From contig KV748228.1 in NCBI GenBank assembly GCA_001692895.1, positions 497,344 through 561,343 of the forward strand: a stretch of DNA of 64,000 nucleotides, given 5' to 3'. The DNA is from Cenococcum geophilum 1.58 (lineage: Eukaryota; Ascomycota; Dothideomycetes; Gloniales; Gloniaceae). Shown here one piece after another: positions 3,300 through 51,481 of this stretch. The position numbers were made by a program, and so were the translations under genes. Within the stretch, counting starts at the first letter, position 1. The number at the start of each line of letters is the position of its first letter. Under the pieces are notes generated by a model. That model was not told the origin of the DNA and made no database searches. It was given only the letters and a program-made list of their open reading frames with translations.

Positions 3300-6200
3300 A
3301 GGCATCTTATTTAGAGGGCCGTTAAGGCGCTAGTAATAAGCAAGCTAATAGCGATTTTCTATCCCGGGGATGGAAAATCCTAATTAGCTAGGTTAAGTCA
3401 GGGTCTATAAAATCCCCCCTCTTAAAAAGTCTTAGTAAGAGAATCTAACTAATTAAATAACTTTAACCGCTGGTTAAAGTTCCTAGATATCTTAAGACCT
3501 TATATAACTAAGAAATTTTTAGGGACTCCCTTTTAACCTAACCTTTAACTTATATATATAGAGTATTTATATTAATAAACGTCTTTAGTGCCTTATTTAG
3601 GTTCGCCTTTATTATTATATCTACTAGGTTATCTTAGCTATTAATTTATTAAATCTTAAAGAGTTTTTAACGCTTATAGGATTGCTAAAGTGCTATAATA
3701 TTAATTATAAGGCGCTTCTTCTTTATAGTACTAAGCTTAACTAAACACTCGTAGAGGGAATATAAGTTGGTATATATAATTATAGGAATAACGGGAAGTT
3801 TAAGTTAATCTATAATTATCTTTAGGGTAGTTCTAATTATAATTGCTATATTAACTCCGCTAACTATTCTATATATCTCTAATACTAAAATACTTTAGGT
3901 AACGCGCTTGCTCTTAGTTAAGCTCTAATAGATAAGATTACTATAGATTATAAAGTTATTCTCTCCTATAAATTCGTTTATAATAATAATCTTATATCCT
4001 AACTAGAAGCTAAAATCTTTATTATTTATAAACGATCTATTAATAAATATAAAGAGCTTAGCGGTAGGAAGATTAATAGGCACATAGAGTAGTCCCTAAT
4101 TAAGATAGTTTATTTACTAGGAAAGACGTTTATTTAGGGTAAGAACGTTATCTTTAGTTAGTTCCTAGTATTAGGCGGTAACGGAGAGATTAAATAAAGC
4201 CTTAAGTTAATAGATAGAAGCAATATAAGCTCCGCAAGCGCGTTGCTCTATATATCCTTACTTTAGGGAATTAACGTTAATAACGTTAATCTTTTTACCT
4301 TAACCTTTCTGGCGTAAAGCAATAGAATTCTTATTTAGGGAGAGGATGCATCTATTAAAAAGTAATAGTGTTATTAAATTAAGCTTTTCCTTTAGCTTTG
4401 CTATAAGATTTACCTTTACTAGCTTATCCTCTTTAAGAGCTAAAAATTAGTCGTCTCCTAAGATAATTATATTATTAGTTTATATACTAATAATTCTAAA
4501 TAGGGTTCCTATAGTTATAATAAGGAAGCAGGGATTAAATATAGAAGTAATTATTAAAAGCTTCTCTTTATGGTGCTTACTATAGGTAGCCTACTAGTGA
4601 GTTCCTACCTCTATAATTCTATATAATGGCTTAAGTATAACTATAATTATATCATTAGGATACTGGTAGCGAATTTGCTTTAGAAGGTATGCTAATATTA
4701 AGCGCTAAAGGTGCGTCTTTAATTGGGTATAGACTTAAGTAATATCTTATAAATAAACCGCTATTCTATTCTTTATTAAGGAGGGAGCTAATATAATAAT
4801 AACTCGCTAACTAGCTCGTTAAATTATAGGAGATTATATAAGAATTATCTCTTTGCTATTATTGTTATAACCTTAGATAATAAGCCTTAATTTCTTAAAT
4901 AGGGCATTAGTAGCTTTACCCTTAATCTTATTAACCATCCTTAACTTAAAGATGCGAACTTTATTAAACTTAGTAGGGTTATACTTCTTAAATTTAAAGA
5001 CTCCTCTTATAATAAGACTATCAATCTCCTACTTATTAGATACTTAGAAAGGAGCTCCTAAAATTATAATACAACCTTCCTTTTAGAGCTGTTTTATAAG
5101 TTTAAAGTTAGCCTTCTCCTTAGCTATTATAAAGGCTATTAATAGCTTAACTCTATTCTTAATAGCGGCAATAAATTGCTCTTTAAAATTAACAAAATGT
5201 TAGTAATTTTATAATCCCTTTAGGCGATCTCTACCGCGTTATAGTTGCGGCGCATCTACTATAATTATATTAGAATTATAGTCGCCTTCTAGAGTATATT
5301 AATTATAGTTCTTCTTTAGGGCCTCTTTTAGGGTATTCTATAAAGGCTCAGAACTATTATCTTTATAGTAAGGCTTAATAATAGTTAAATGGAATTAAGT
5401 AGGTTTGTAAAGCATTTAAATAGTATAAGTTTAACTATTAATTATAATAAGTTAATATAGGCCTAACTACCCTCCCTTTTTACGCTATACGCGTACCTTA
5501 GACTAAAGTGGCAGATTAAGCATAGTTAAGGTGTTTAAGCCATTTCTTATTCCTAGTACGTTGTTAACCTGGTATATAGCGTAAAGACGTCGCACCTCCT
5601 TCGTTGCCTTATAAATAGCCTTAGCTTATTACACGATGGAGGGAGATAGTAGAGAATTGTTAGTTATTTAAGGGTAGGCGCTAAAGACTAGTAATATGGG
5701 TATAAGTCTATCTAGGTTAGCGGAATTGTTAATAGCTTTAACAGCCATTTATAAGGTAAGTTCTTCGCTAGCATCCTCTAGTTTTAAAGAGATAATCTTA
5801 TATACGCGGCATAATAGCGTGTAATATTACTCTACTTTTTTAACGCTATTATATGCCTTAACAGGGACTTCCTTAACCTTAATTACTATTGCCTTTATCT
5901 ATTATTAAAACTCTATAGATAAGAAGTTCTTTCCTATATTATGGACGATTTAATTAGGGGGTCCTAGGTAGACATTAATTTAGTATAATTAAAGGGTATC
6001 CTATATATTCTTAGCTAATATATCCTTTAAGAATTGTGCGGCTTAGAAGGAGGTTAAGAAGTTAATAACTTAGAGTACTAGCTTGCCGCTAAGATATATA
6101 ACGTTAATAATAATACAGAAGTTAAAGTTGTAGTTATCTTTAAGGGTGAACTTAAATTGGCTAGGGGACTTTTGGTTTATTTAGTAGTAATAGCAGTACT

Positions 6201-7371
6201 TTATAAAATACTTAACTGCCTTAACCTTAACTTTATAGCCTACTTATTAAAGAACTCTAAGTAATTAATAAATAGATAGGTGGCTAAAACAATAGTGTAG
6301 TTAACGTAACTCTAACTTAGTTAGGTAGCTCTAAGCAATACTTTTTTCTAGTTAATAAAGGAGCAACTAAGGGTAACCCTACTTGCGCATAACGGGCACC
6401 TAATTATCTCCCTAAATAAGTATATCCTTAAGGTTATTAAGCTTAATGCCTAATTTATCTATATCTTTAATGCAAAATAGAAATAGGATGTTTATAGAAA
6501 TAATGTAAAAGGTAATGTACCCTAAGGGGGTTTGGACCCTAATTGTGCTAAGAGAGATTATAGTACCCTTGCCAAAACGAATCGTGTGTTGGCCTGCTAT
6601 TAAATAGTTAATCTAAATAGAGCTATTAAGCTGCTAAAGGGCTTAAACTTAAGGTTCTCCTGCTATAGATACTCCTATAGCTTTAGTATCTAGTATAATA
6701 CTATAAAAGATGTTTACTAAGTATCTATTATTAAAAAAGAACGCGGAACTCTCCCTTAGCTTATTAAAGATATTTAACTTTATAGTAAAATAGAGCGTAG
6801 ATTGGTTATTAAGAATAGTAATAGTTTATATACTATCTACCTTACTATATTTAGTGAAGTATTGGTTAGGTAAGTACTCTTTAATTTCTATATCTATAAG
6901 GAGCTATTTAGCCTTATTAACCTTACCCTTAAGATCTTCTACGCCTTTATATTAAACTAGGAAGCTTTAAAAGTAGGCCGTAGTAACCTTATAATTTCTA
7001 ACATTTCTTACACTCTAGCGAAACTTATTATATGCCTTCTTTTACTTATTAAAAGAATACCTAGTTAACTAGTAATTTGGTTTCTTATAAACGTAGCACT
7101 TCTTTTAGCAATTACTTTAAAATAAACCTCTATAAGGGCCTCCACCTTTACCTTATAGTCGTTAATTATACCCTCTACCGTATTGCCTACCCCGGCCACT
7201 ATATGTTTGATTAGTCCAGTTATAATTATATTGGTTAGGCGGGTTAATTAAAGTAGGTTAGAGTTAGGCGTTAAATTACTATACTTCTTAAAAGCGTAGA
7301 GCGGTGCTAATAGAAGATCTTAATTAAGTATATATTCCTTTATAAGTATTTATAGGATTAAAGAAAGTAAG
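3300..7371 (-). pseudogene. Copia A pol and C-terminal gag, degenerate
   Basis: Minus-strand relic parallel to 53300-57130 of Copia C. The reverse transcriptase tail reads like LGDDQFLALKEDKL near 4330-4500 and the gag zinc-knuckle region lies near 7070-7160. Cleaves, copies and integrates the element RNA in living relatives; here the frame is saturated with TAA/TAG and the catalytic Asp codons are mutated. Broken at 7371 by Copia D and resumed at 13620. Confidence 0.75.
3316..3392. repeat. palindromic module in Copia A 3' UTR
   Basis: Contains GATTTTCTATCCCGGGGATG then GAAAATC, flanked by AGGGCCGTTAAGGCGCTAG. Lies between the end of pol and the 3' LTR. Confidence 0.8.
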
Positions 7372-7618
7372 TGTATAATTACAGCACCTGCTGTACCAAC
7401 CGCATACGCGTTTACGCGTTCAGTGCACCAACCACTCGCTTACGCGTCTAGTGCACTTATAAAGCACTAACTAATTAGGGGGGAGGCGCATTAGTATATA
7501 GACCACGTAGTCTGCTTTATACAATTAACAGTCACCATCATTTAAAAGAGTATACGATACTACACGTATTTCGTGCCCCTGGATCTAACTCATTTATGCT
7601 ATTAAGTTAGTACGAACA
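7372..7618 (+). repeat. Copia D 5' LTR (247 bp)
   Basis: Starts TGTATAATTACAGCACC and ends TTAGTACGAACA. Contains paired ACGCGTTTACGCGTT and CAGTGCACCAACCACT-type subrepeats, likely part of the promoter region. Confidence 0.9.
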
Positions 7619-7998
7619 CTAATTAGTAAGCGCGCATAGATCAGCAATTACTTGATACCTCCCCCCAAGCGATATATACGACAGCAACTACCCGTTTAGA
7701 CTCCTAGTACGACCTACTAGAAGGTCGGAAGTTAGGGATTACGGACTTATCTCTAACTCTATATACTTATTTAAGTCTTAGTATAGTTTATTAGAAGTTA
7801 TAGACGCGAATATAGACCTATATGGAACCCCTATCCTTAACCCCCTTAAACCTTAAACCTCTTCAGACCTTTTACGGAAAACCCCTACCCTCCTACGAAC
7901 TATTACAGACCCGTTAATTAATTTTACGGACCGTTATAAGACCTCCCCCACCCGTTATAAGCTGCTACTACCTACTACGCACTATACTATACTATAGT

Positions 7999-10900
7999 AT
8001 GGCAGATATCAGTAAGCAAGTTAGTAAAGGTTAAAAGAAGTAGAGACAAGGAGTTAACGTTATATCTATAAATAACGTTAACAACTATATTAGTTTCAAA
8101 ATCCTTAAATACAAATACTTTAAGCTTATAAATAACGACCTATGGGAGCAATACTAGAAAGACTTTGTGGACTTTACGGAAGCTATTCTTAAGGCCTATG
8201 ACCCTATTACTATCTGTAAACTATAAACCCTTTTACGTAACTAAGGTATATAGGTTAAAAGGAATAAACGAGTTACTATTGTACAGTCCTTATACAATAC
8301 AATACATAAAAAGGATTAAACGGAATAGACTAAAGAGGAAATCCTAGACTAGTTCTAAGAAACTAAGGAACTCTTTACTTCTTCCAAACTTAATATAATT
8401 GCTAGCCTTATACCTAACCCACTTAACCAAATTCGTCCCATAAACCTAAGTGGCTTTAGACTTAACCTTATTAGCCAAAATACACCCTACTCTTAAGTTA
8501 TAAATTACAATACCCCTATAAACCAAAATACGGACTAAACTACCCCTGCTATTTAAGTTATAGACCCGTAAGCTATATATCCGCAAGCCACAGATCTATA
8601 AGTTATAGATCCGTAACCTATCTAAGTAAAGACTTATAGTAAGGAGCTAGCTAACCTAGCCAAGCTCTATACCAATAAATCTAAGTACAGCAGTAAAAAT
8701 AATAATTTTAAATTTAAACTAACTATTTTTACGGACCTCTACTAGAAGGCCAATATTCCTAAACAAGAGTTTAGCCAAGCCTACTCTACTATGCTGCGCG
8801 GCCTAGCACTTAACCACTACTACACTAACCTCAAGAGCAACCTCCTTAGTGTCCCCTTTAATAAGTTATACGAAGCTACCTGCAACTACTTTAAAGAACC
8901 GGAATATAGGCGTAATATCCTTACCTAATAGAATGCAACTAAGCTACGGACCGTAATCGACAAGAATACTAAAAAATCGACTATAAAGTGCCTATAAATT
9001 CTCATTAAAGACCTCCAGCACCTATAGCACGGCCTTAACGCTAAGCTTCGAACAGACAACTTCCTGCATAATAAACTTATTACGGCCTACTAGGAAGTAA
9101 AGCCCTATAAGTACACCTACTACAAGCCTATAGATACCTTAGCTAGCCTTATTAATAATCTACGCTCCTCTATTATAACCTATAAAGTCTTAAACCCACT
9201 AGGTAGCACTTACGCCTTTATTACGGATATTTAATATCCGTAAATAGACTTAGACGTCTACTTTACGGACCGCCGCTATTGCTAGCAGCACCCGTACCGA
9301 CCAAGTCCTACCTATAACCCCCGCAGCAACCCCTATATAAAAGTATACCCCCATAGACAAATAAGCCAGAAATGCTTTATATATAGCAAGGAAGGATGTT
9401 AGTCTATAAGGTATACCTAGGAAGAACATAACAGGTCTAAGAAAAGATTTAATAAACGGATTAGCCAGTTTATCTTAGAATATAAAGGAGAGGAAGAAGA
9501 GAAGCCCCCTAATAAGTTAATAGAAGCCCTTATAATTAACTTTAACCTAAACAACTAAAAATAGGAGACCCTAGAGACGTTCCTAACTACTTTTAGACCT
9601 TTTACGGACAGCTAAGCCTTTAATATTACAACCGTATTAGCCGACCGTTCCTTTATACACTTAGTTACGCCTAAAAACCATTCCACAAGCACCCCTATTA
9701 CGGATGTTATAGATTATAAGCAGGACCTATTTACATATATTACTACAAAACGCTATACCCCTAAGGAATTCTACGGTGTTATAATTGACATAGGCGCCTC
9801 TAAGAAGTCTACTATAGGCTACGGACAATACCTTGTATATAGGACCACCGCAAATAACAATATGGACATTAATATTACGCAAACTAGGGCCGTAAACGTC
9901 CAATTCGGCATTAGCTCAACTGCATTAATTAGATTAGTTATAGTTAAGACCCTAATTAGCCTAGTTAACTTCTATATAGTAAAAGCAGACACCCCTTTCT
10001 TACTTTGCCTTACGGACATAAATTGGTTATAGGTTTACTATAATAATATTACGGACACCTTAATCGGCCCTATAACTGCCCTAGGAAGCAAGCATATTAC
10101 CCTACTAATTATATAACAATTTGGACACCCGTTCCTTATATAAGGAGAGACTTTACAGACCTATATTTAGGAATCTTTTAACTATAACCCGTGCTACCTT
10201 ACTAGTATGGAGATCCACCGTCTACACTGCCGTTTCGGCCACCTATTAGCCGAAAAGCTATATAGAGTCCTTAAACGCTCTAGACATAACAACGTTAATA
10301 GAAAGGCAGTTAATTACCTAACTAAATACTGCTCCTTTTGCTAGAAATACGGACGTTCCCTAGGCCAATTTAAGTTTACCCTTTATAAGAACCTTAACTT
10401 TAACCACTTAGTATATATAGATATTATATACATTAACGGCAGCCTAGTATTACATATAATTAACAAGGCAACCCGCTACTAAGCCGCCTATTAGTTGCAA
10501 AATATATCCGTAAAGCACACTTGGGATATTTTACGGACCTGCTAGATTAACACGTACGTTAGACCTCCTAAGTATATCACCCACAACACCGGTAGGAACT
10601 TCATTAGTAAGAAATTCTAGCAGTATGCTATGGCCATGGCTATATTAACAAAAGCTGTTCTAGTTAAGGCGTATTAGTCTATTAGGCTTATTAAGTAAGC
10701 TTACCTAGCTTTATAGAGAGCTTATTAAATCATTACGGACGAATATAAGGACATCTAAAAGGAACTGGCTCTGCAGATAGCCGTAAAAGCCGTTAATAAT
10801 ACCGCTGGCCCGGACGGACTAGTACCTACCCTCTTAGTTTACGGAGCCTACCTAAGGATAAGTAACCTAGATCCTCCTGCCCCGTCTATTACGGAACAAG

Positions 10901-45934: not shown

Positions 45935-46291
45935 TCAACTGGCTTGCTTGTTAGCAAGCCCGACTTGGCTTCGTCTGGGCGATCTTGGTCTTCACAGTAT
46001 CAAACAGATCTATCCCCATGTCGTTCTCTACCTCTATCAATCTTAAGAGTTTTTTTTGAAGTAACTAAATCCTGTCGGCATCACTCCGAATATTGGTCGA
46101 ACGACTGGAAAGTACTCCGTGACTTGAAACCGTATGCTAAGGCGAACGTAATGCAAGATACGATGAATGTAAGACCATTATTAAGTGTGCAGCGAGTGCA
46201 TAAGACCAGTAATATTATACATATCCTTAGAAAAACTTCCACAATAGCACGTACATGGGACCAAGCAGGCCGAAACACTGCACGCGCTTCT
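45935..46291. other. intergenic, downstream of COQ4
   Basis: GC-balanced sequence. Several overlapping ORFs exist on both strands but none shows a domain, and one overlaps the COQ4 3' end in antisense. Probably 3' UTR and spacer. Confidence 0.6.
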
Positions 46292-47270
46292 TTAAAACCG
46301 ATTAACTCGGGTAGCACCACTCCCCCCAGCCTCTTTGGCTCTCTTCATGGCCTCTCTTTCAAATTTCCTTATCGCTCTTAAATCCGGCGGTTTTTCAATC
46401 CCTAGCCTATTCCGTAGCTCGTTAACATCAGTTTCCAATTCCTCTTCCCAATAAACATTAATCACGTTATCCGCCAGCAACCCATTTCGAAACGCCCACG
46501 GGCCATATATCTCCCAAAACCGTTGCCATTCCTTCTTCTTTAGCGTCAGAGCAGCAAATACGCTCATCCCTGTCATTGGAAGCCCAGTGTTTGCAAACTC
46601 AAAAGCTTTAAGCGCGACTTCGCCCTCTCGGAACACAGGTAGTCCAACGAGAGCATGGTAAAAATCGTGACATTCTCGATACCTTTGCATGACGTAGGCA
46701 CATTCAGGGTCGTCAATGTAGCGCACCGCAGCGCGGGTATCAGGGGAGACACCTTCGCGGTCTAGCCAGGCCGCGTAGGCATAGCCAACAGTATTAGAGG
46801 GTAGAGAACGCAGGCGAGGAATGGAGAGAGATGTGGATGTAATGCGAGGACGGTCGTGGAGGATTCGCCGACCGGTAGGTGAGAGAAGCATGCGGTTACG
46901 AAGGTGATCGATAAAGAAGGGTTGGGCAGTGGCTTCGCCTAGAGCGGCTATGAGGTCTAGGAAGATGATTTAGCATACTTTAATTAATGGCGCACGACCA
47001 TATATAGGTGGATTGCGGGTTAGAATATAGTAAATAGGGCATACCTCCACGGCGCGGGTCTCTAAAACATAATAGAGCGGATCCTATTGCCAGAGCTCCG
47101 CGCTCAATCTTAGTAAGAGGAATGTGGCCCTCATAATTGGGCGGAGGGCGGTTAAGAAGGGAGAAGAATCTATAGCTTGCAGGGAGTACGAGGATGCGAG
47201 AAACAGTACAAGATGGGGAGGGTGAATGGATAAGAGGCCTGGCTAGCGAATGTTTTAAGAAGCTAGCCAT
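46292..47270 (-). CDS. COQ4: COQ4, ubiquinone biosynthesis protein, mitochondrial
   Basis: Coq4 is required for coenzyme Q synthesis on the matrix side of the mitochondrial inner membrane, where it organises the CoQ synthome. Two exons: 47270-47045 and 46956-46292, joined over an 88-bp intron (GTATGC ... CTTCCTAG). The junction gives [20 protein letters not shown] without a break, so the intron is certain. Product 296 aa, usual family size. Residues 1-40 are basic and Ser-rich ([16 protein letters not shown]), a mitochondrial presequence. The family metal-binding motif HDxxHx11E is intact (HDFYH at 172-176, Glu 188), as are LKAFEF, TGLPMT and VYWEEELE. An in-frame ATG 12 codons upstream (47306) is less likely because it would precede the presequence. 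No stops: this gene escaped RIP despite standing between damaged repeats. Confidence 0.95.
46957..47044 (-). other. COQ4 intron (88 bp)
   Basis: Minus strand GTATGCCCTATTTAC ... TATGCTAAATCATCTTCCTAG: 5' splice site GTATGC, branch-like GCTAAAT and 3' CTAG. Phase 1; the Asp codon GAC is split across it. Confidence 0.93.
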
Positions 47271-47420
47271 TGCAACATGGAGACGGCTCGGTGGTGGGTA
47301 GATCAATAGCTAGTGGAGGTCGTAGACCTAAAGTGCGGTTATCTCGGGGTAACGCACGGGCCACACACTACCTCTTGCGAACTCCTTGACCATACTTCAG
47401 GGGTAGGCTAGTTGCATTCT

Positions 47421-47464
47421 ACAAGGGTGTGGCCAGAGCGGGTCGGCACCCTCCCTACTAGCGC
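47421..47464 (+). repeat. left 44-bp terminal inverted repeat
   Basis: ACAAGGGTGTGGCCAGAGCG, GGTCGGCACCCTCCCTACTA, GCGC. Preceded by T, giving TA at the outer border. Confidence 0.85.
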
Positions 47465-47610
47465 GCTTAAGTAGCGCTAGCCCGTACGGGATATCCTACA
47501 TTCCTATAGTGAAGATATTAATCTTGCGGAAGTAACTTTAAGAGAGGTTTTAAAGCAAGCTTCTTATCTAACCTTAGCGCGAATATTATTTAGCAGAAGA
47601 TTATAAAGTA

Positions 47611-47698
47611 GAAGATTCCTAAGTAGAGTATTTCTAAGCATTATATTCCTACACAGCGCATTTTTAAGCAGTGCATTTCTAAGCAGTATATTTGTAAG
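47611..47698. repeat. short 15-bp imperfect tandem repeat
   Basis: Units like TTTCTAAGCAGTGCA, TTTTTAAGCAGTGCA and TTCCTAAGTAGAGTA, about six copies. Located between the left terminal repeat and the NLR 3' end. Confidence 0.65.
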
Positions 47699-47997
47699 CT
47701 TTGCAGTGTGTGGGAATTGAACGAGCGACTTGATTGTAAATCTATGGAAATCAAGTGGTATAAATACATGAAAGTAGACCCCGAACTCCGAAGCCCATGA
47801 CTCATTTCCAACGTATCTGAGACATACGAGGGTAGTGCTGACGCAGGTGAAACAGGGTAATATGCAAGGTCCGGTAGTCGGTTACAATATTTCTAAGCAC
47901 ATCTCCAAAGCTGAAAGCGTACTCTATATAAAAAAGTATATAAAGTAAGCAAGCAGGAATGGTAGTGGGCGGGGAGGTGGTATACCAGAGGAGACTA

Positions 47998-50894
47998 TTA
48001 AATGCTCCATCGTAGCAGCTTGACCACGGCCTCGTGCCCTCCCACCGCCGCCCACGATAGCGGCGTCCGACCGTACCCCTCGTCCTTCGACTCGACGTCG
48101 ACCTTGCCTGTCTCGAGCAGCAGCTTGACCACGGCCTCGTGCCCTCCCTCCGCCGCCCGCGATAGCGGCGTCCGACCGTACACGGTGTCCTTCGACTCGA
48201 CGTCGACCTTGCCCGTCTCGAGCAGCAGCTTGACCACGGCCTCGTGCCCTCNNNNNNNNNNNNNNNNNNNNNNNNNNNNNNNNNNNNNNNNNNNNNNNNN
48301 NNNNNNNNNNNNNNNNNNNNNNNNNNNNNNNNNNNNNNNNNNNNNNNNNNNNNNNNNNNNNNNNNNNNNNNNNNNNNNNNNNNNNNNNNNNNNNNNNNNN
48401 NNNNNNNNNNNNNNNNNNNNNNNNNNGTTGTCCTTCGACTCGACGTCGACCTTGCCCGTCTCGAGCAGCAGCTTGACCACGGCCTCGTGCCCTCTCTCCG
48501 CCGCCCACGATAGCGGCGTCCGACCGTAGGTGTCCTTCGACTCGACGTCGACCTTCGGACTCTCGAATAGTAATTTGATTATATCCATTAACCCAAAATA
48601 TGCGGCATAATGTACACCCTGAAAATCTTTGGGAAAGCCCTGGCTATATTTACGAAACTGCCATACTTTAGGAACAATAAATAAGGCTTGGCTTGCGCAT
48701 GATACTTTGCGCTTGTCCAGTAGAAACTTTAATGCCAGATCATGGAGATTGCGTCCGGTTTCTTTATGGATATAATTCCCCACGTTTCGAGCGGCATAGT
48801 CAAGTAGTGTATTTTCCCTCAGTCGACATTCGAATAGTTTATCGGTAGAGCAGTAGCCCTTACTAAACACATCAAGCGATAAATACTTGAGACATGCTAT
48901 TCCAATATCCCGTCGTGCATCTGGGAAATGTTCTGCGCCGCTTCATTCGAGGTATTCTTGAGTGGTTTTATGAACCAAGCCAATAACATTCCTTTCTTCG
49001 TCGATTTTTACCATCCCCGCACAGGCGTTGACGATTACGCTCTGGGGTGTTAAAATCTCCTCAGAAATAGATCGATCATCAGGTTCAAGGTCATCGACAG
49101 CTATGGCATGTAGGACTTCCTCGAGTTGGAGAGGCCTAACGGCGTACACGATCCAAGATAAAGCCCGCATGGCAAGTATTTTAGTAGGCTGTTGCTTAAT
49201 TCTCTCCATAGTTTCGTTATAATTATCATCGAGTGTCGCTGGTAATTCACGTAACGCCTTTTTAACAGCTCTAAGATTGGTCTTTGAAGCTAGAGACTCG
49301 ACATAAAGTCGCGCGGCCAGAAACCTTTAGATATGTCAGTACTCTAAATAAAGGGAAATACGAATAAAGTAGTACAGAACTTACATCCCCCTAGCTTTCA
49401 ATACAACTACTTGCAGAATATCGTTTTGGAGGTTAGAATCTAGTCGACAAAATCCTAATAAAAGATGTTTAGACTTGACCTGCGCTTAAACGTAGGATCT
49501 GATGTCCGCCTCGCTAGCACGTATTTCGATGCGAGTCGATCCCGCTAAGATTCCTGCAATGTCGTCGATATGCCTTGATGTATATAGCAGACGCAGATTG
49601 GAGACAAAATCCTTTAGCTTGGTAAGAAGGTCGTTCCAAATAATCTCCCCTTTTCTATTGATGCATTCATCTAACGCATCAATAATAATATACACCTCGG
49701 AGCATTCTTTAGTTAAAGATTGAAGCAACTTCAAATACTCCGCACAGGTGGGTGTTGTCCCCTTCCCACGGTGCTTTTTATAAAGAGTGCGTACGTCCCC
49801 TGGAATGGCCTGCCTTCGCTCTACTAACTGCCGGACGATTGCGCTGATAAAGTATTCAATTGTTTATAACAGATTCTCTTTGTGGTTACAGTAGATGAAT
49901 GTAAGCCCTATGTCTTGGACGGGCAAATCGTTTTCAAGAAATTCGACCACAGCCGACCTTAATGGTCAATCTTATTGCTCATGCTTGTTAATATAAAGGT
50001 TCTACTTACGCGAGCACAGTCTTGCCAACACCAGCTGACATCTGGTTAGTTTTTAATTGATACAGCTTTGAGATTAGACTGATGCAAGCATAACTCACGG
50101 CTTCCTAGGCACCAAACGGTCTCTTTGTTTCCCTTCGCCCACTCAAGAAAGTCTAGATGTTCAAGCAGCCATTGCCCAGTTCCAGTTTGTTTTTAATTAG
50201 ACACATCCGCCTGCTTTAACCAGAAATTTACCGATAATAACCAACCAAATATGCTTTAAGTTTCTTCGTCTTAACTGCTCGTTAGTTATTTGTGTTGGAA
50301 GAAAGCCAAGAAATTATCTGGAATAACTAGTACCTTTTTGCCAGCGTACAAGCAAATTAACTTCGTAGCGAATATCTGAGATACCGCCGCTAGACATTTG
50401 AATTAGCTTAATCTTTACGGAACATCACCAACAAATCTTAGGTATACGAACACTTGTAGGACTTGTAAAGCTAGATAAAGGTTTGAACGAGCCTCAGAAA
50501 CAACTCGTTGGATTTTGCTTAGCGTTTCTTCTCTAAACGGATACAACGCTCTCCGTACATGGCGTCGCATTACGGATCGCGCACCTAGCTTAGGTGATTC
50601 TGTGCCCTGTACTTTTCTTAATTCGTCTTTAAGCTTCTCTAAAGCCCCATTAATACGGTCAACATTTTTCTCCACGCTATCCTTTATACTCATATCAAAC
50701 GTGGCGGGTGGTTAGATAGTCTTCGATAGGATCGTTAAAGTTCTCTGCAGGCTATCGAGCGATGCACACATATCTAAGATATCACTATCTTGGTCCTTCC
50801 AGGATCCATAGTACTTCAGAAGTCCCTGCGTTAACTGTATGCCGAGCGAAACAATGCCAACAACACTGCCCGCTACACCTAAAGCCTCAGCCAT
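47998..50894 (-). pseudogene. NACHT-ankyrin NLR (STAND) protein gene with RIP-type nonsense mutations
   Basis: Fungal NLR-type receptor: an N-terminal signalling domain, a nucleotide-switch NACHT, and ankyrin repeats as sensor, used in non-self recognition and programmed cell death. N-terminus MAEALGVAGSVVGIVSLGIQ belongs to the domain common at the start of fungal STAND proteins; then a helical part (50693-50430). Introns fixed by frame and motif: 50098-50035, giving CLGSPGVGKTVLA (Walker A); 50009-49958, giving ASAVVEFLE; 49384-49325, giving MFLAARLYVESL; one more near 50440-50385 is uncertain. Walker B is YIIIDALDEC (about 49680). A winged-helix-like region follows (49209-48946), then ankyrins with 35-residue units ([20 protein letters not shown]). 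175 N fall inside the ankyrins. In-frame stops at 50714-50712, 50258-50256, 50195-50193, 49866-49864, 49488-49486 (TAA) and 48945-48943 (TGA) each need only one C-to-T change on the coding strand. Confidence 0.88.
48021..48540 (-). repeat. near-identical 105-bp ankyrin-coding tandem repeats with assembly gap
   Basis: Units spaced exactly 105 bp (35 codons) such as CTCGAGCAGCAGCTTGACCA are almost identical and GC-rich. The N run at 48252-48426 interrupts them, so the true copy number is unknown. Near-identity implies recent amplification or concerted exchange, as reported for other fungal NLR sensor repeats. Confidence 0.9.
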
Positions 50895-51436
50895 AGTTAA
50901 ACCCCAAACCGAGCGGATAGAGAGGATGTAAAGAATAAGAGTTTTGCCAGGTGGATCTAAAGAATGCAGTTTTGCGGTCTCTCTTCCGTTAAGATCGCCA
51001 AATGACAGGTTATAAGCGCGCAGACCGCCCCGCCTTCGCTGGGCAGTTTCGATGATTTATGCAGCCTTGACCACGTCAGCGGTGCAGGCAACCAATGATA
51101 GCTGACTGATCTAACCCTCCTATTTTCTGATTCTCTTCTTCGCTAGTTGGACCCTAGCAATAAAAGTATACTGAAAGGGCGGATATGTGCGAGATCAGGA
51201 AGGTCTAGACGCGTAACTGCATATGGGCTAGTTCAGCAGGTAACTGTGTTAATAACTGGTGGGGAAAGTTTTTAGGCAACACTTAGGGCGGAAGCCGATT
51301 CCGCTAGTAACTGTACTCTACTTTCAGTAACTGATTCTCTACACTCTTCTGGTTATCGAGGTATACATTTACAATAAGTATTGATTAGTGATCACACTTC
51401 TGGCTTTGCCGCCCTTGCAAGCTGAGAATTTTGGCA
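50895..51436. other. upstream region of the NLR gene
   Basis: Presumed promoter and 5' UTR of the NLR gene inside the TIR-bounded segment. Normal base composition. No further ORF or motif was recognised. Confidence 0.5.
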
Positions 51437-51480
51437 GCGCTAGCAGGGAGGGTGCCGACCCGCTCTGGCCACACCATTGT
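51437..51480 (-). repeat. right 44-bp terminal inverted repeat
   Basis: Reverse complement ACAATGGTGTGGCCAGAGCG, GGTCGGCACCCTCCCTGCTA, GCGC. Followed by A, giving TA at the outer border. Confidence 0.85.
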
Positions 51481-51481
51481 A

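What the first reader, a model, noticed from the sequence alone, without database searches (positions are those of the whole stretch)
47421..51480. NLR gene inside a TIR-bounded, TA-flanked segment: possible mobile element with an immune-receptor cargo
Seen: 44-bp inverted repeats with two mismatches, both starting at a TA, 4060 bp apart, with a complete-length NACHT-ankyrin gene as the only gene between them. Known: TA duplication and terminal inverted repeats are the marks of Tc1/mariner-type transposition, and many small fungal elements are non-autonomous. The gene carries six C-to-T nonsense changes, whereas COQ4, only 700 bp outside the repeats, has none. RIP acts on duplicated DNA, so the segment (or the gene) was probably multicopy. 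Inference: a transposon-like unit that has carried an NLR around the genome.
Basis: partly seen in the sequence, partly recalled or inferred. Interest (0 to 1): 0.8.

Follow-up and report, generated by a model that had tools for sequence, protein, structure and literature searches.

The report
Fungal immune-receptor genes in shared inverted repeats
In this fungal genome a 43-base inverted repeat found at hundreds of places encloses, again and again, a different immune-receptor (NLR) gene, which suggests a family of small mobile cassettes that carries and reshuffles the fungus's self/non-self receptors.

Summary
The arms are real: 45 nt, 96% complementary, 47420-47464 / 51437-51481. They belong to a genome-wide family: 315 matches to the arm pattern, 0 to the reversed control. 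The family is tied to NLR genes. Of 122 listed arms, 18 have a listed NACHT hit within 10 kb inward and 1 outward; 1.03 per side expected. The best hits of six transposase or recombinase families show no such excess. Of 16 two-armed units read, 13 hold NLR domains or relics of several architectures. The window's unit shares its left part with one unlinked unit and its right part with another; both homologies stop at the arm.

Best reading: a non-autonomous TIR-bounded element family with NLR cargo. RIP is weak in this unit. No empty site could be tested and no mobilising enzyme was found.

The parts
47420..47464 (+). left inverted arm (core CAAGGGTGTGGCCAGAGCGGGTCGGCACCCTCCCTACTAGCGC), 43-45 bp; unit boundary at A|CAAGGG
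   Evidence: homology with the C39 copy begins at 47421
51437..51481 (-). right inverted arm, 96% complementary to the left
   Evidence: homology with the C8 copy (L035) ends here
48001..51056 (-). NLR gene (NACHT-winged helix-ankyrin), interrupted by in-frame stops, with at least one intron-like gap (GTAAGT...TACTGAC...AG, within about 49330-49390)
50715..51056 (-). N-terminal domain, weak PigL_N-like match (below cut-off); about 61% identical over 65 aa to a piece in the C8 unit L035
49489..49863 (-). NACHT (NPHP3_N, profile positions 68-164)
48946..49326 (-). winged-helix (GPIID_WHD) region
48001..48600 (-). ankyrin repeats, about 105-bp DNA units; contains the run of N (about 48252-48426)
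47421..48579 (.). left part homologous to the unlinked C39:670646 unit (L042/L002): collinear blocks at 86% and 84%, ankyrin repeats beyond; one segment of about 187 bp is extra in the window
50877..51478 (.). right part homologous (79-85%) to the unlinked C8 unit (L035:4550-5331)

Best explanation
The segment is one copy of a multi-copy family of small (about 1.8-13 kb) elements bounded by a shared 43-bp terminal inverted repeat. Their main cargo is NLR-type immune-receptor genes, in one case with an apparent executioner gene. SHOWN: the shared arms, their inward pairing, the repeated enclosure of diverse NLR genes, and homology between unlinked copies that stops at the arm. INFERRED: the whole arm-to-arm block is moved by an enzyme supplied from elsewhere that recognises the arms (cut-and-paste or a similar mechanism). 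Because receptors of different classes share the same arms while the window's unit has its left half from one lineage and its right half from another, arms and cargo appear to recombine between units. That would produce new receptor combinations and place them at new sites, here in the COQ4 promoter region.
For: 315 arms against 0 in the reversed-pattern control. Neighbouring listed arms within 16 kb face inward in 19 of 29 cases, against 3 ++, 3 -- and 4 -+; one overlapping head-to-head junction left out. Listed NACHT hits inward of 18 of 122 arms and outward of 1, expected 1.03 per side; shuffled positions for the 93 arms on contigs of known length: observed 14, mean 0.87, maximum 5 in 5000. 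NB-ARC inward of 3 arms, outward of 1, expected 0.23. 16 two-armed units (the window's included; in some the second arm was found only by looser matching, up to 8 mismatches in 28): 13 with NLR domains or relics, of which 9 with a detectable nucleotide-binding domain and 4 with other NLR parts only (C6 post-NACHT region and WD40, C104 TPR, C18 and C39b ANK); C4, C7 and C85 without. 117 kb outside arms gave one NLR-type match, beside C7, plus kinase and HET matches. The arm match between different units is about 38-43 bp. Homology edges fall at the arms in two unlinked copies, with no left-flank match in any fetched locus.
Against: No consistent target-site duplication. No empty site could be tested. 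None of six transposase or recombinase families is enriched inside arms. Three of 16 units have no NLR, and at C7 a PNP/NB-ARC gene lies outside the arm. Of eight further loci read from one arm only, C8b, C1 and C11 gave no match, C45b only its own CHAT frame, and C8a a match to the window's N-terminal piece and a kinase; C89, C69 and C16 hold NLRs but were chosen for a nearby NACHT hit. Many arms are bordered outward by other shared repeats, some abutting CAAGGG exactly, so the true terminus may lie further out in those copies. Cargo is divergent, so no recent transposition is seen. The NACHT and transposase lists are capped at the best-scoring hits.
Confidence: 0.65

Rival explanations
1. 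Recombination cassettes, not transposons: the arms are repeated sites at which homologous recombination or gene conversion exchanges NLR cassettes between loci; no transposase is involved.
For: Arms are 87-98% alike among the best matches while the cargo ranges from unrelated to 65-73% DNA identity outside ankyrin repeats; the window's unit is a mosaic of two other units; no enzyme and no duplication found.
Against: The unit sits beside COQ4 with no match of the left flank to any fetched locus, which exchange between existing sites would not explain; 43 bp is short for ordinary homologous recombination (recalled).
Confidence: 0.17
2. Independent MITE-like or solo insertions of the arm that prefer the neighbourhood of NLR genes; the pairs are coincidental.
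For: Arms without a listed partner exist; 3 of 16 units lack an NLR.
Against: NACHT hits lie inward (18) rather than outward (1) of arms, and neighbours face inward in 19 of 29 cases; homology between unlinked copies includes the interior and stops at the arm.
Confidence: 0.07
3. Classic Tc1/mariner-type element with TA duplication.
For: TA at both outer ends in the window, C7, C18 and C24, 4 of 24 pairs.
Against: TA before only 16 of 69 distinct arms; DDE_1 1 inward/1 outward (one and the same gene, beside C104) and DDE_3 0/2 of 122 arms, expected 1.03 per side.
Confidence: 0.06
4. The arm is an internal or one-sided end of larger nested elements that chain head to tail; the NLR units are what lies between two such heads.
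For: Outward shared repeats abut CAAGGG exactly in several copies; the 4.2-kb repeat starting at the C4 arm is followed by a further arm in direct orientation; 10 of its 16 long copies begin 23-31 bases into the query and so seem to lack the arm.
Against: In the window and the C39 copy no homology extends outward of the arm; the Helitron replicase domain is not enriched (1/1 of 122).
Confidence: 0.05

Closest known systems
Starship giant transposons (DUF3435 tyrosine recombinase captain)
   Same: [quoted passage not shown] PMC12134995 (passage) reports one putative NLR in a Starship.
   Different: Here 1.8-13 kb units, inverted arms of 43 bp, and no DUF3435 excess (one arm of 122, two hits 7.9 and 8.3 kb inward, expected 1.03).
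Pack-TIR / Pack-MULE elements (non-autonomous TIR elements carrying host genes; recalled)
   Same: Shared TIRs, different flanks, host-gene cargo, no own transposase found.
   Different: Cargo here is largely one functional class (NLR) and in several units an apparently complete gene; duplication length and mobilising enzyme unknown.
ToxhAT-type cargo transposons of Pyrenophora/Parastagonospora (recalled; PMC9594970 seen only as a search listing)
   Same: A TIR-bounded unit carrying a gene relevant to biotic interaction in Dothideomycetes.
   Different: Listed hAT domains not enriched (0 inward/1 outward of 122); many different cargo genes rather than one.
HET-S/NWD2-type NLR-effector gene pairs with amyloid signalling (recalled; PMC3321046 seen as a search listing with the start of its abstract)
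   Same: The C39 unit holds a HeLo gene whose C-terminus matches Ses_B (E 1.7e-6, above cut-off) and a NACHT-ANK gene whose putative first exon gives a weak Ses_B match (E 0.012, 15.9 bits, below the 23.2 cut-off).
   Different: Here the pair lies between transposon-like arms.

Membership tests
Fungal NLR (window gene) | NACHT or NB-ARC domain followed by repeats | tested here: met
   NPHP3_N 1.9e-12, WHD 4.2e-7, Ank 5.1e-30
TIR-bounded gene-carrying element | inverted arms shared by unlinked copies | tested here: met
   315 vs 0 control; 19 of 29 neighbours inward
TIR-bounded gene-carrying element | homology between copies stops at the arm, flanks unrelated | tested here: met
   for the window unit; left: C39 copy; right: C8 copy
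TIR-bounded gene-carrying element | target-site duplication | tested here: inconclusive
   TA both ends 4 of 24, TTAA 1 of 24, otherwise none consistent
TIR-bounded gene-carrying element | autonomous relative with the same ends | tested here: inconclusive
   best hits of six enzyme families not enriched; most of the 315 arms not read
TIR-bounded gene-carrying element | empty site in another strain | not testable with these tools
   no relatives of this genome are held
Tc1/mariner | TA duplication at each copy | tested here: not met
   TA before 16 of 69 distinct arms
Tc1/mariner | DDE_1 / DDE_3 transposase between arms | tested here: not met
   1 inward/1 outward and 0/2 of 122 arms for the 150 best hits of each
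Starship | DUF3435 captain inside | tested here: not met
   one arm of 122, 150 listed hits of 165
Starship | tens to hundreds of kb | tested here: not met
   19 inward pairs 3.5-13.2 kb
Helitron | Rep/helicase domain linked to the ends | tested here: not met
   PF14214 1 inward/1 outward of 122, 150 best hits
MULE / hAT | transposase linked to the ends | tested here: not met
   MULE 0/0 (79 hits), hAT 0/1 (150 best hits) of 122

The most novel reading that the evidence does not exclude
A dedicated NLR cassette system: one conserved 43-bp inverted end serves as a common mobility or recombination signal for receptors of unrelated architecture and for receptor-executioner pairs, so that a sizeable part of this fungus's recognition repertoire is spread and reassorted as interchangeable mobile units. 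It could work as a diversification mechanism in a genome where RIP restricts ordinary duplication.
Probability: 0.3. Interest if true: 0.92.

Novelty: new variant of a known kind. Interest (0 to 1): 0.78.

Why it matters
How fungal NLR repertoires become large and combinatorially diverse under RIP is open. [quoted passage not shown] A shared inverted end around many NLRs would link the two and give a directly testable route: look for presence/absence of arm-to-arm blocks between strains. In my eight literature searches (open-licence PMC full text only; listings seen) I saw no description of such a small TIR family with NLR cargo; Starships are the published vehicle that I found.

Tried and rejected
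Tc1/mariner, hAT, MULE, Helitron and Starship assignments were tested by domain proximity and not supported. A target-site duplication was searched within 70 bp outward of both ends of 24 pairs: longest direct match 16 bp (C45, inside a TA-rich repeat), otherwise 9 bp or less at inconsistent offsets; no general duplication. Rfam and tRNA searches on the window unit gave nothing. The 4.2-kb repeat of C4/C8/C1 was considered as the autonomous copy: no long open frame (longest 129 codons), and most long copies seem to lack the arm, so it was dropped. Outer shared repeats were followed for several searches without a settled explanation. tblastn relics are weak in C14 (E 2.8e-13 TPR, 4.7e-6 NB-ARC) and partial in C6, C18, C39b and C104. 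A first outside-arm control was mis-specified: for arms on the minus strand it took inward sequence; one search replaces it. One search counted two arms twice; one search corrects it. Dropped rows: the overlapping C39:1118283/1118307 junction in the orientation count; the 4 NACHT matches beyond the 150 listed (of 154; 318 candidates, 150 scored); arms beyond the 100 listed of 315, to which the 40 and one further were added (122 distinct).
Full report
OBSERVATION. The window (G000:C53:497344-561343 of a 177.19-Mb, 162-contig assembly) contains inverted arms at 47420-47464 and 51437-51481, 45 nt, 96% complementary. Between them lies an NLR gene on the minus strand. Stops end its open pieces at 50712, 50415, 49486 and 48943, and a 175-base run of N lies in the ankyrin part. 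COQ4 starts at 47270, 150 bp from the left arm, and reads away from it. The host is probably Cenococcum geophilum: the closest named COQ4 relatives are Glonium stellatum (93%) and Lepidopterella palustris (90%), and the published C. geophilum genome is given as 178 Mb, 81% repeats (PMC5023957, passages). This identification is inference.

THE ARM IS A FAMILY. DNA search with 100 bases from the left end gave 40 scored matches of 62 candidates. A 31-nt pattern with up to 3 mismatches gave 16, control 0. A 26-nt IUPAC pattern with up to 2 mismatches gave 151 forward and 164 reverse, control 0 (the first 100 places are listed). The union of listed arms is 122. Among 29 neighbouring arm pairs within 16 kb (one overlapping junction left out), 19 face inward, 3 are ++, 3 -- and 4 -+.

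THE FAMILY IS TIED TO NLR GENES. Independently of the arms I located NPHP3_N/NACHT domains (154 matches, 150 listed; 318 candidates, 150 scored) and NB-ARC domains (34). A listed NACHT hit lies within 10 kb inward of 18 of 122 arms and outward of 1; 1.03 per side is expected. These are 15 distinct NACHT hits of 150. Random relocation of the 93 arms on contigs of known length gave a mean of 0.87 and a maximum of 5 in 5000 trials, against 14 observed. Families that mark ordinary transposons behave as chance predicts (1.03 per side expected for 150 hits, 0.54 for MULE): Helitron 1 inward/1 outward, MULE 0/0, DDE_1 1/1 (one gene beside C104), hAT 0/1, DDE_3 0/2, DUF3435 1 arm/0. These lists too hold only the best-scoring hits (150 each, 79 for MULE). 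Within that limit the link is to NLRs and not to repeat-rich DNA in general.

WHAT THE UNITS HOLD. Of the 16 units with both arms read, 12 beside the window's hold NLR domains or relics: C57 NACHT-WD40 with an alpha/beta-hydrolase-like frame (below cut-off); C113 PNP-NACHT-ANK; C12 PNP-NACHT-ANK; C39 HeLo plus NACHT-ANK; C9 NB-ARC-TPR; C45 NB-ARC-TPR (52-64% identical to C9, decayed); C6 WD40 with a weak match to the region after NACHT; C17 NACHT-WD40 (decayed); C14 NB-ARC/TPR relic; C104 TPR relic; C18 and C39b ANK only. C4, C7 and C85 hold none. Nine of the 16 (window, C57, C113, C12, C39, C9, C45, C17, C14) show a nucleotide-binding domain. In several units (among them C45, C17, C39b, C6 and C85) the second arm was recognised only by looser matching. 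The units were chosen by arm similarity or by pairing, not by content. Eight more loci were read from one arm only: C89 (PNP-NACHT-ANK), C69 (PNP-NACHT) and C16 (NACHT-WD40) were chosen because a NACHT hit was near and are not counted; C8a matches the window's N-terminal piece and a kinase; C45b has a CHAT-domain frame; C8b, C1 and C11 gave nothing. In 117 kb outside arms, including 60 kb of the window, the same queries found one NLR-type match (PNP beside the C7 arm, where an NB-ARC hit also lies) plus fungal kinase and HET matches, two of which are the queries' own loci; 96 kb lie inside the 16 units. C7 is therefore a counter-example: its receptor is outside the arm.

BOUNDARIES. The window's unit matches the unlinked C39:670646 copy from its second base (47421): 86% over bases 2-280 and 84% over 468-832, with further ankyrin-repeat matches up to about base 1160; a segment of about 187 bp is present only in the window. 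Its right 0.6 kb matches a C8 copy at 79-85% up to the arm. Alignments show both homologies beginning or ending at the arm edge, A|CAAGGG on the left. The left flank 46000-47419 matched no fetched locus; the right flank (to 53500) gave one 58-bp match 1.76 kb away. The same ends with different flanks is what a mobile unit predicts. The two halves come from different relatives, so the unit is a mosaic.

TARGET SITE. In 69 distinct arms the base before CAAGGG is A in 63, but the dinucleotide varies (AA 27, TA 16, CA 10, GA 10, other 6, correcting). Both ends show TA in 4 of 24 pairs (window, C7, C18, C24) and TTAA in one (C13). TA is therefore not a general duplication. In many copies other repeats abut the arm from outside, and in those the terminus is uncertain.

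AGE AND RIP. Among the best matches the arms are 87-98% alike (one longer match 78%), whereas cargo ranges from unrelated to about 65-73% in DNA, more in ankyrin repeats. This suggests constraint on the arms or their homogenisation. The unit is one of the least RIP-affected parts of the window (composite index 0.13, NLR body -0.05; 0.88-1.53 in 14 of 16 4-kb blocks; index thresholds recalled). Several other units are strongly affected (C14 1.07, C104 0.85, C85 1.32).

RECEPTOR-EXECUTIONER PAIR. The C39 unit encodes a HeLo protein (E 1.1e-51) with a C-terminal Ses_B match (E 1.7e-6) and an NLR whose gene model P0123 maps at 100% to L041:5193-8885. Upstream, a short frame (L041:4915-5055) begins MAQNLSSYFKNTTNYGLEVGINLGNINLG and matches Ses_B weakly (E 0.012, below cut-off). 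By eye it resembles the partner's GSNNTGFQLGYNSGSISGF. That this is the NLR's first exon is inference. The closest named relatives of the receptor are from Orbilia (49%) and Trichoderma (47%) (7992 candidates scored).

VERDICT. Confident: a genome-wide inverted-end family encloses NLR genes far more often than chance. Likely (about 0.65): non-autonomous mobile units moved by an unidentified enzyme. Open: enzyme, duplication length, empty site, recent activity. Starships are the known NLR-carrying fungal transposons (PMC9815663 and PMC12134995, passages); these units lack the Starship hallmarks tested.

Noticed in passing
L017, L021, L035:5332, L036:5091, L037:5074 (outer side of arms): A repeat ending ...TTAAAAATTAAACGCCTYTTAAA (one base varies) abuts CAAGGG/TAAGGG exactly in five arms; in L005 the same end occurs about 180 bp out, followed by other sequence. 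Could be elements that insert at the arm, or part of longer ends.
   Followed up: partly
L022, L024, L038:9722, L043:2918, L048 (both arms), L050:5598, L032:791 (outer side): The end of another repeat (CCTCCTCTTT[C/T]...; one reverse frame looks by eye like a degenerate CCHC zinc knuckle, so possibly LINE-like) lies only about 15-50 bp outside the arm, in the same orientation to the arm in these eight arms.
   Followed up: partly
L029:4685-5005: Direct-repeat units that each begin with the arm core (arm-like starts at 4685 and 5005, a further unit between them), i.e. a small tandem array of arm ends.
   Followed up: no
L070:308-309 (C39:1118283-1118332): Two arms head to head, overlapping by two bases (TA).
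   Followed up: no
window 47700-47886 (approximate): About 187-bp segment present in the window unit but absent from the C39 copy; no Rfam or tRNA match; origin unknown.
   Followed up: partly
window 48252-48426 (approximate): 175-base run of N inside the ankyrin repeats: an assembly gap or a withheld stretch.
   Followed up: no
window 47270-47420: The unit begins 150 bp upstream of the COQ4 start codon and may affect COQ4 expression.
   Followed up: no
L041:539-1417 and 4915-8885: HeLo/Ses_B gene and NACHT-ANK gene with a possible matching amyloid motif in one arm-bounded unit.
   Followed up: partly
L019/L050 (C7), outside the left arm: PNP and NB-ARC hits lie outside, not inside, the arm pair; a counter-example to the general pattern.
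   Followed up: no
L027:1246-2085: Low-complexity open frame of repeated arginine/serine/threonine- and histidine/glutamate/alanine-rich words in a unit without intact NLR.
   Followed up: no
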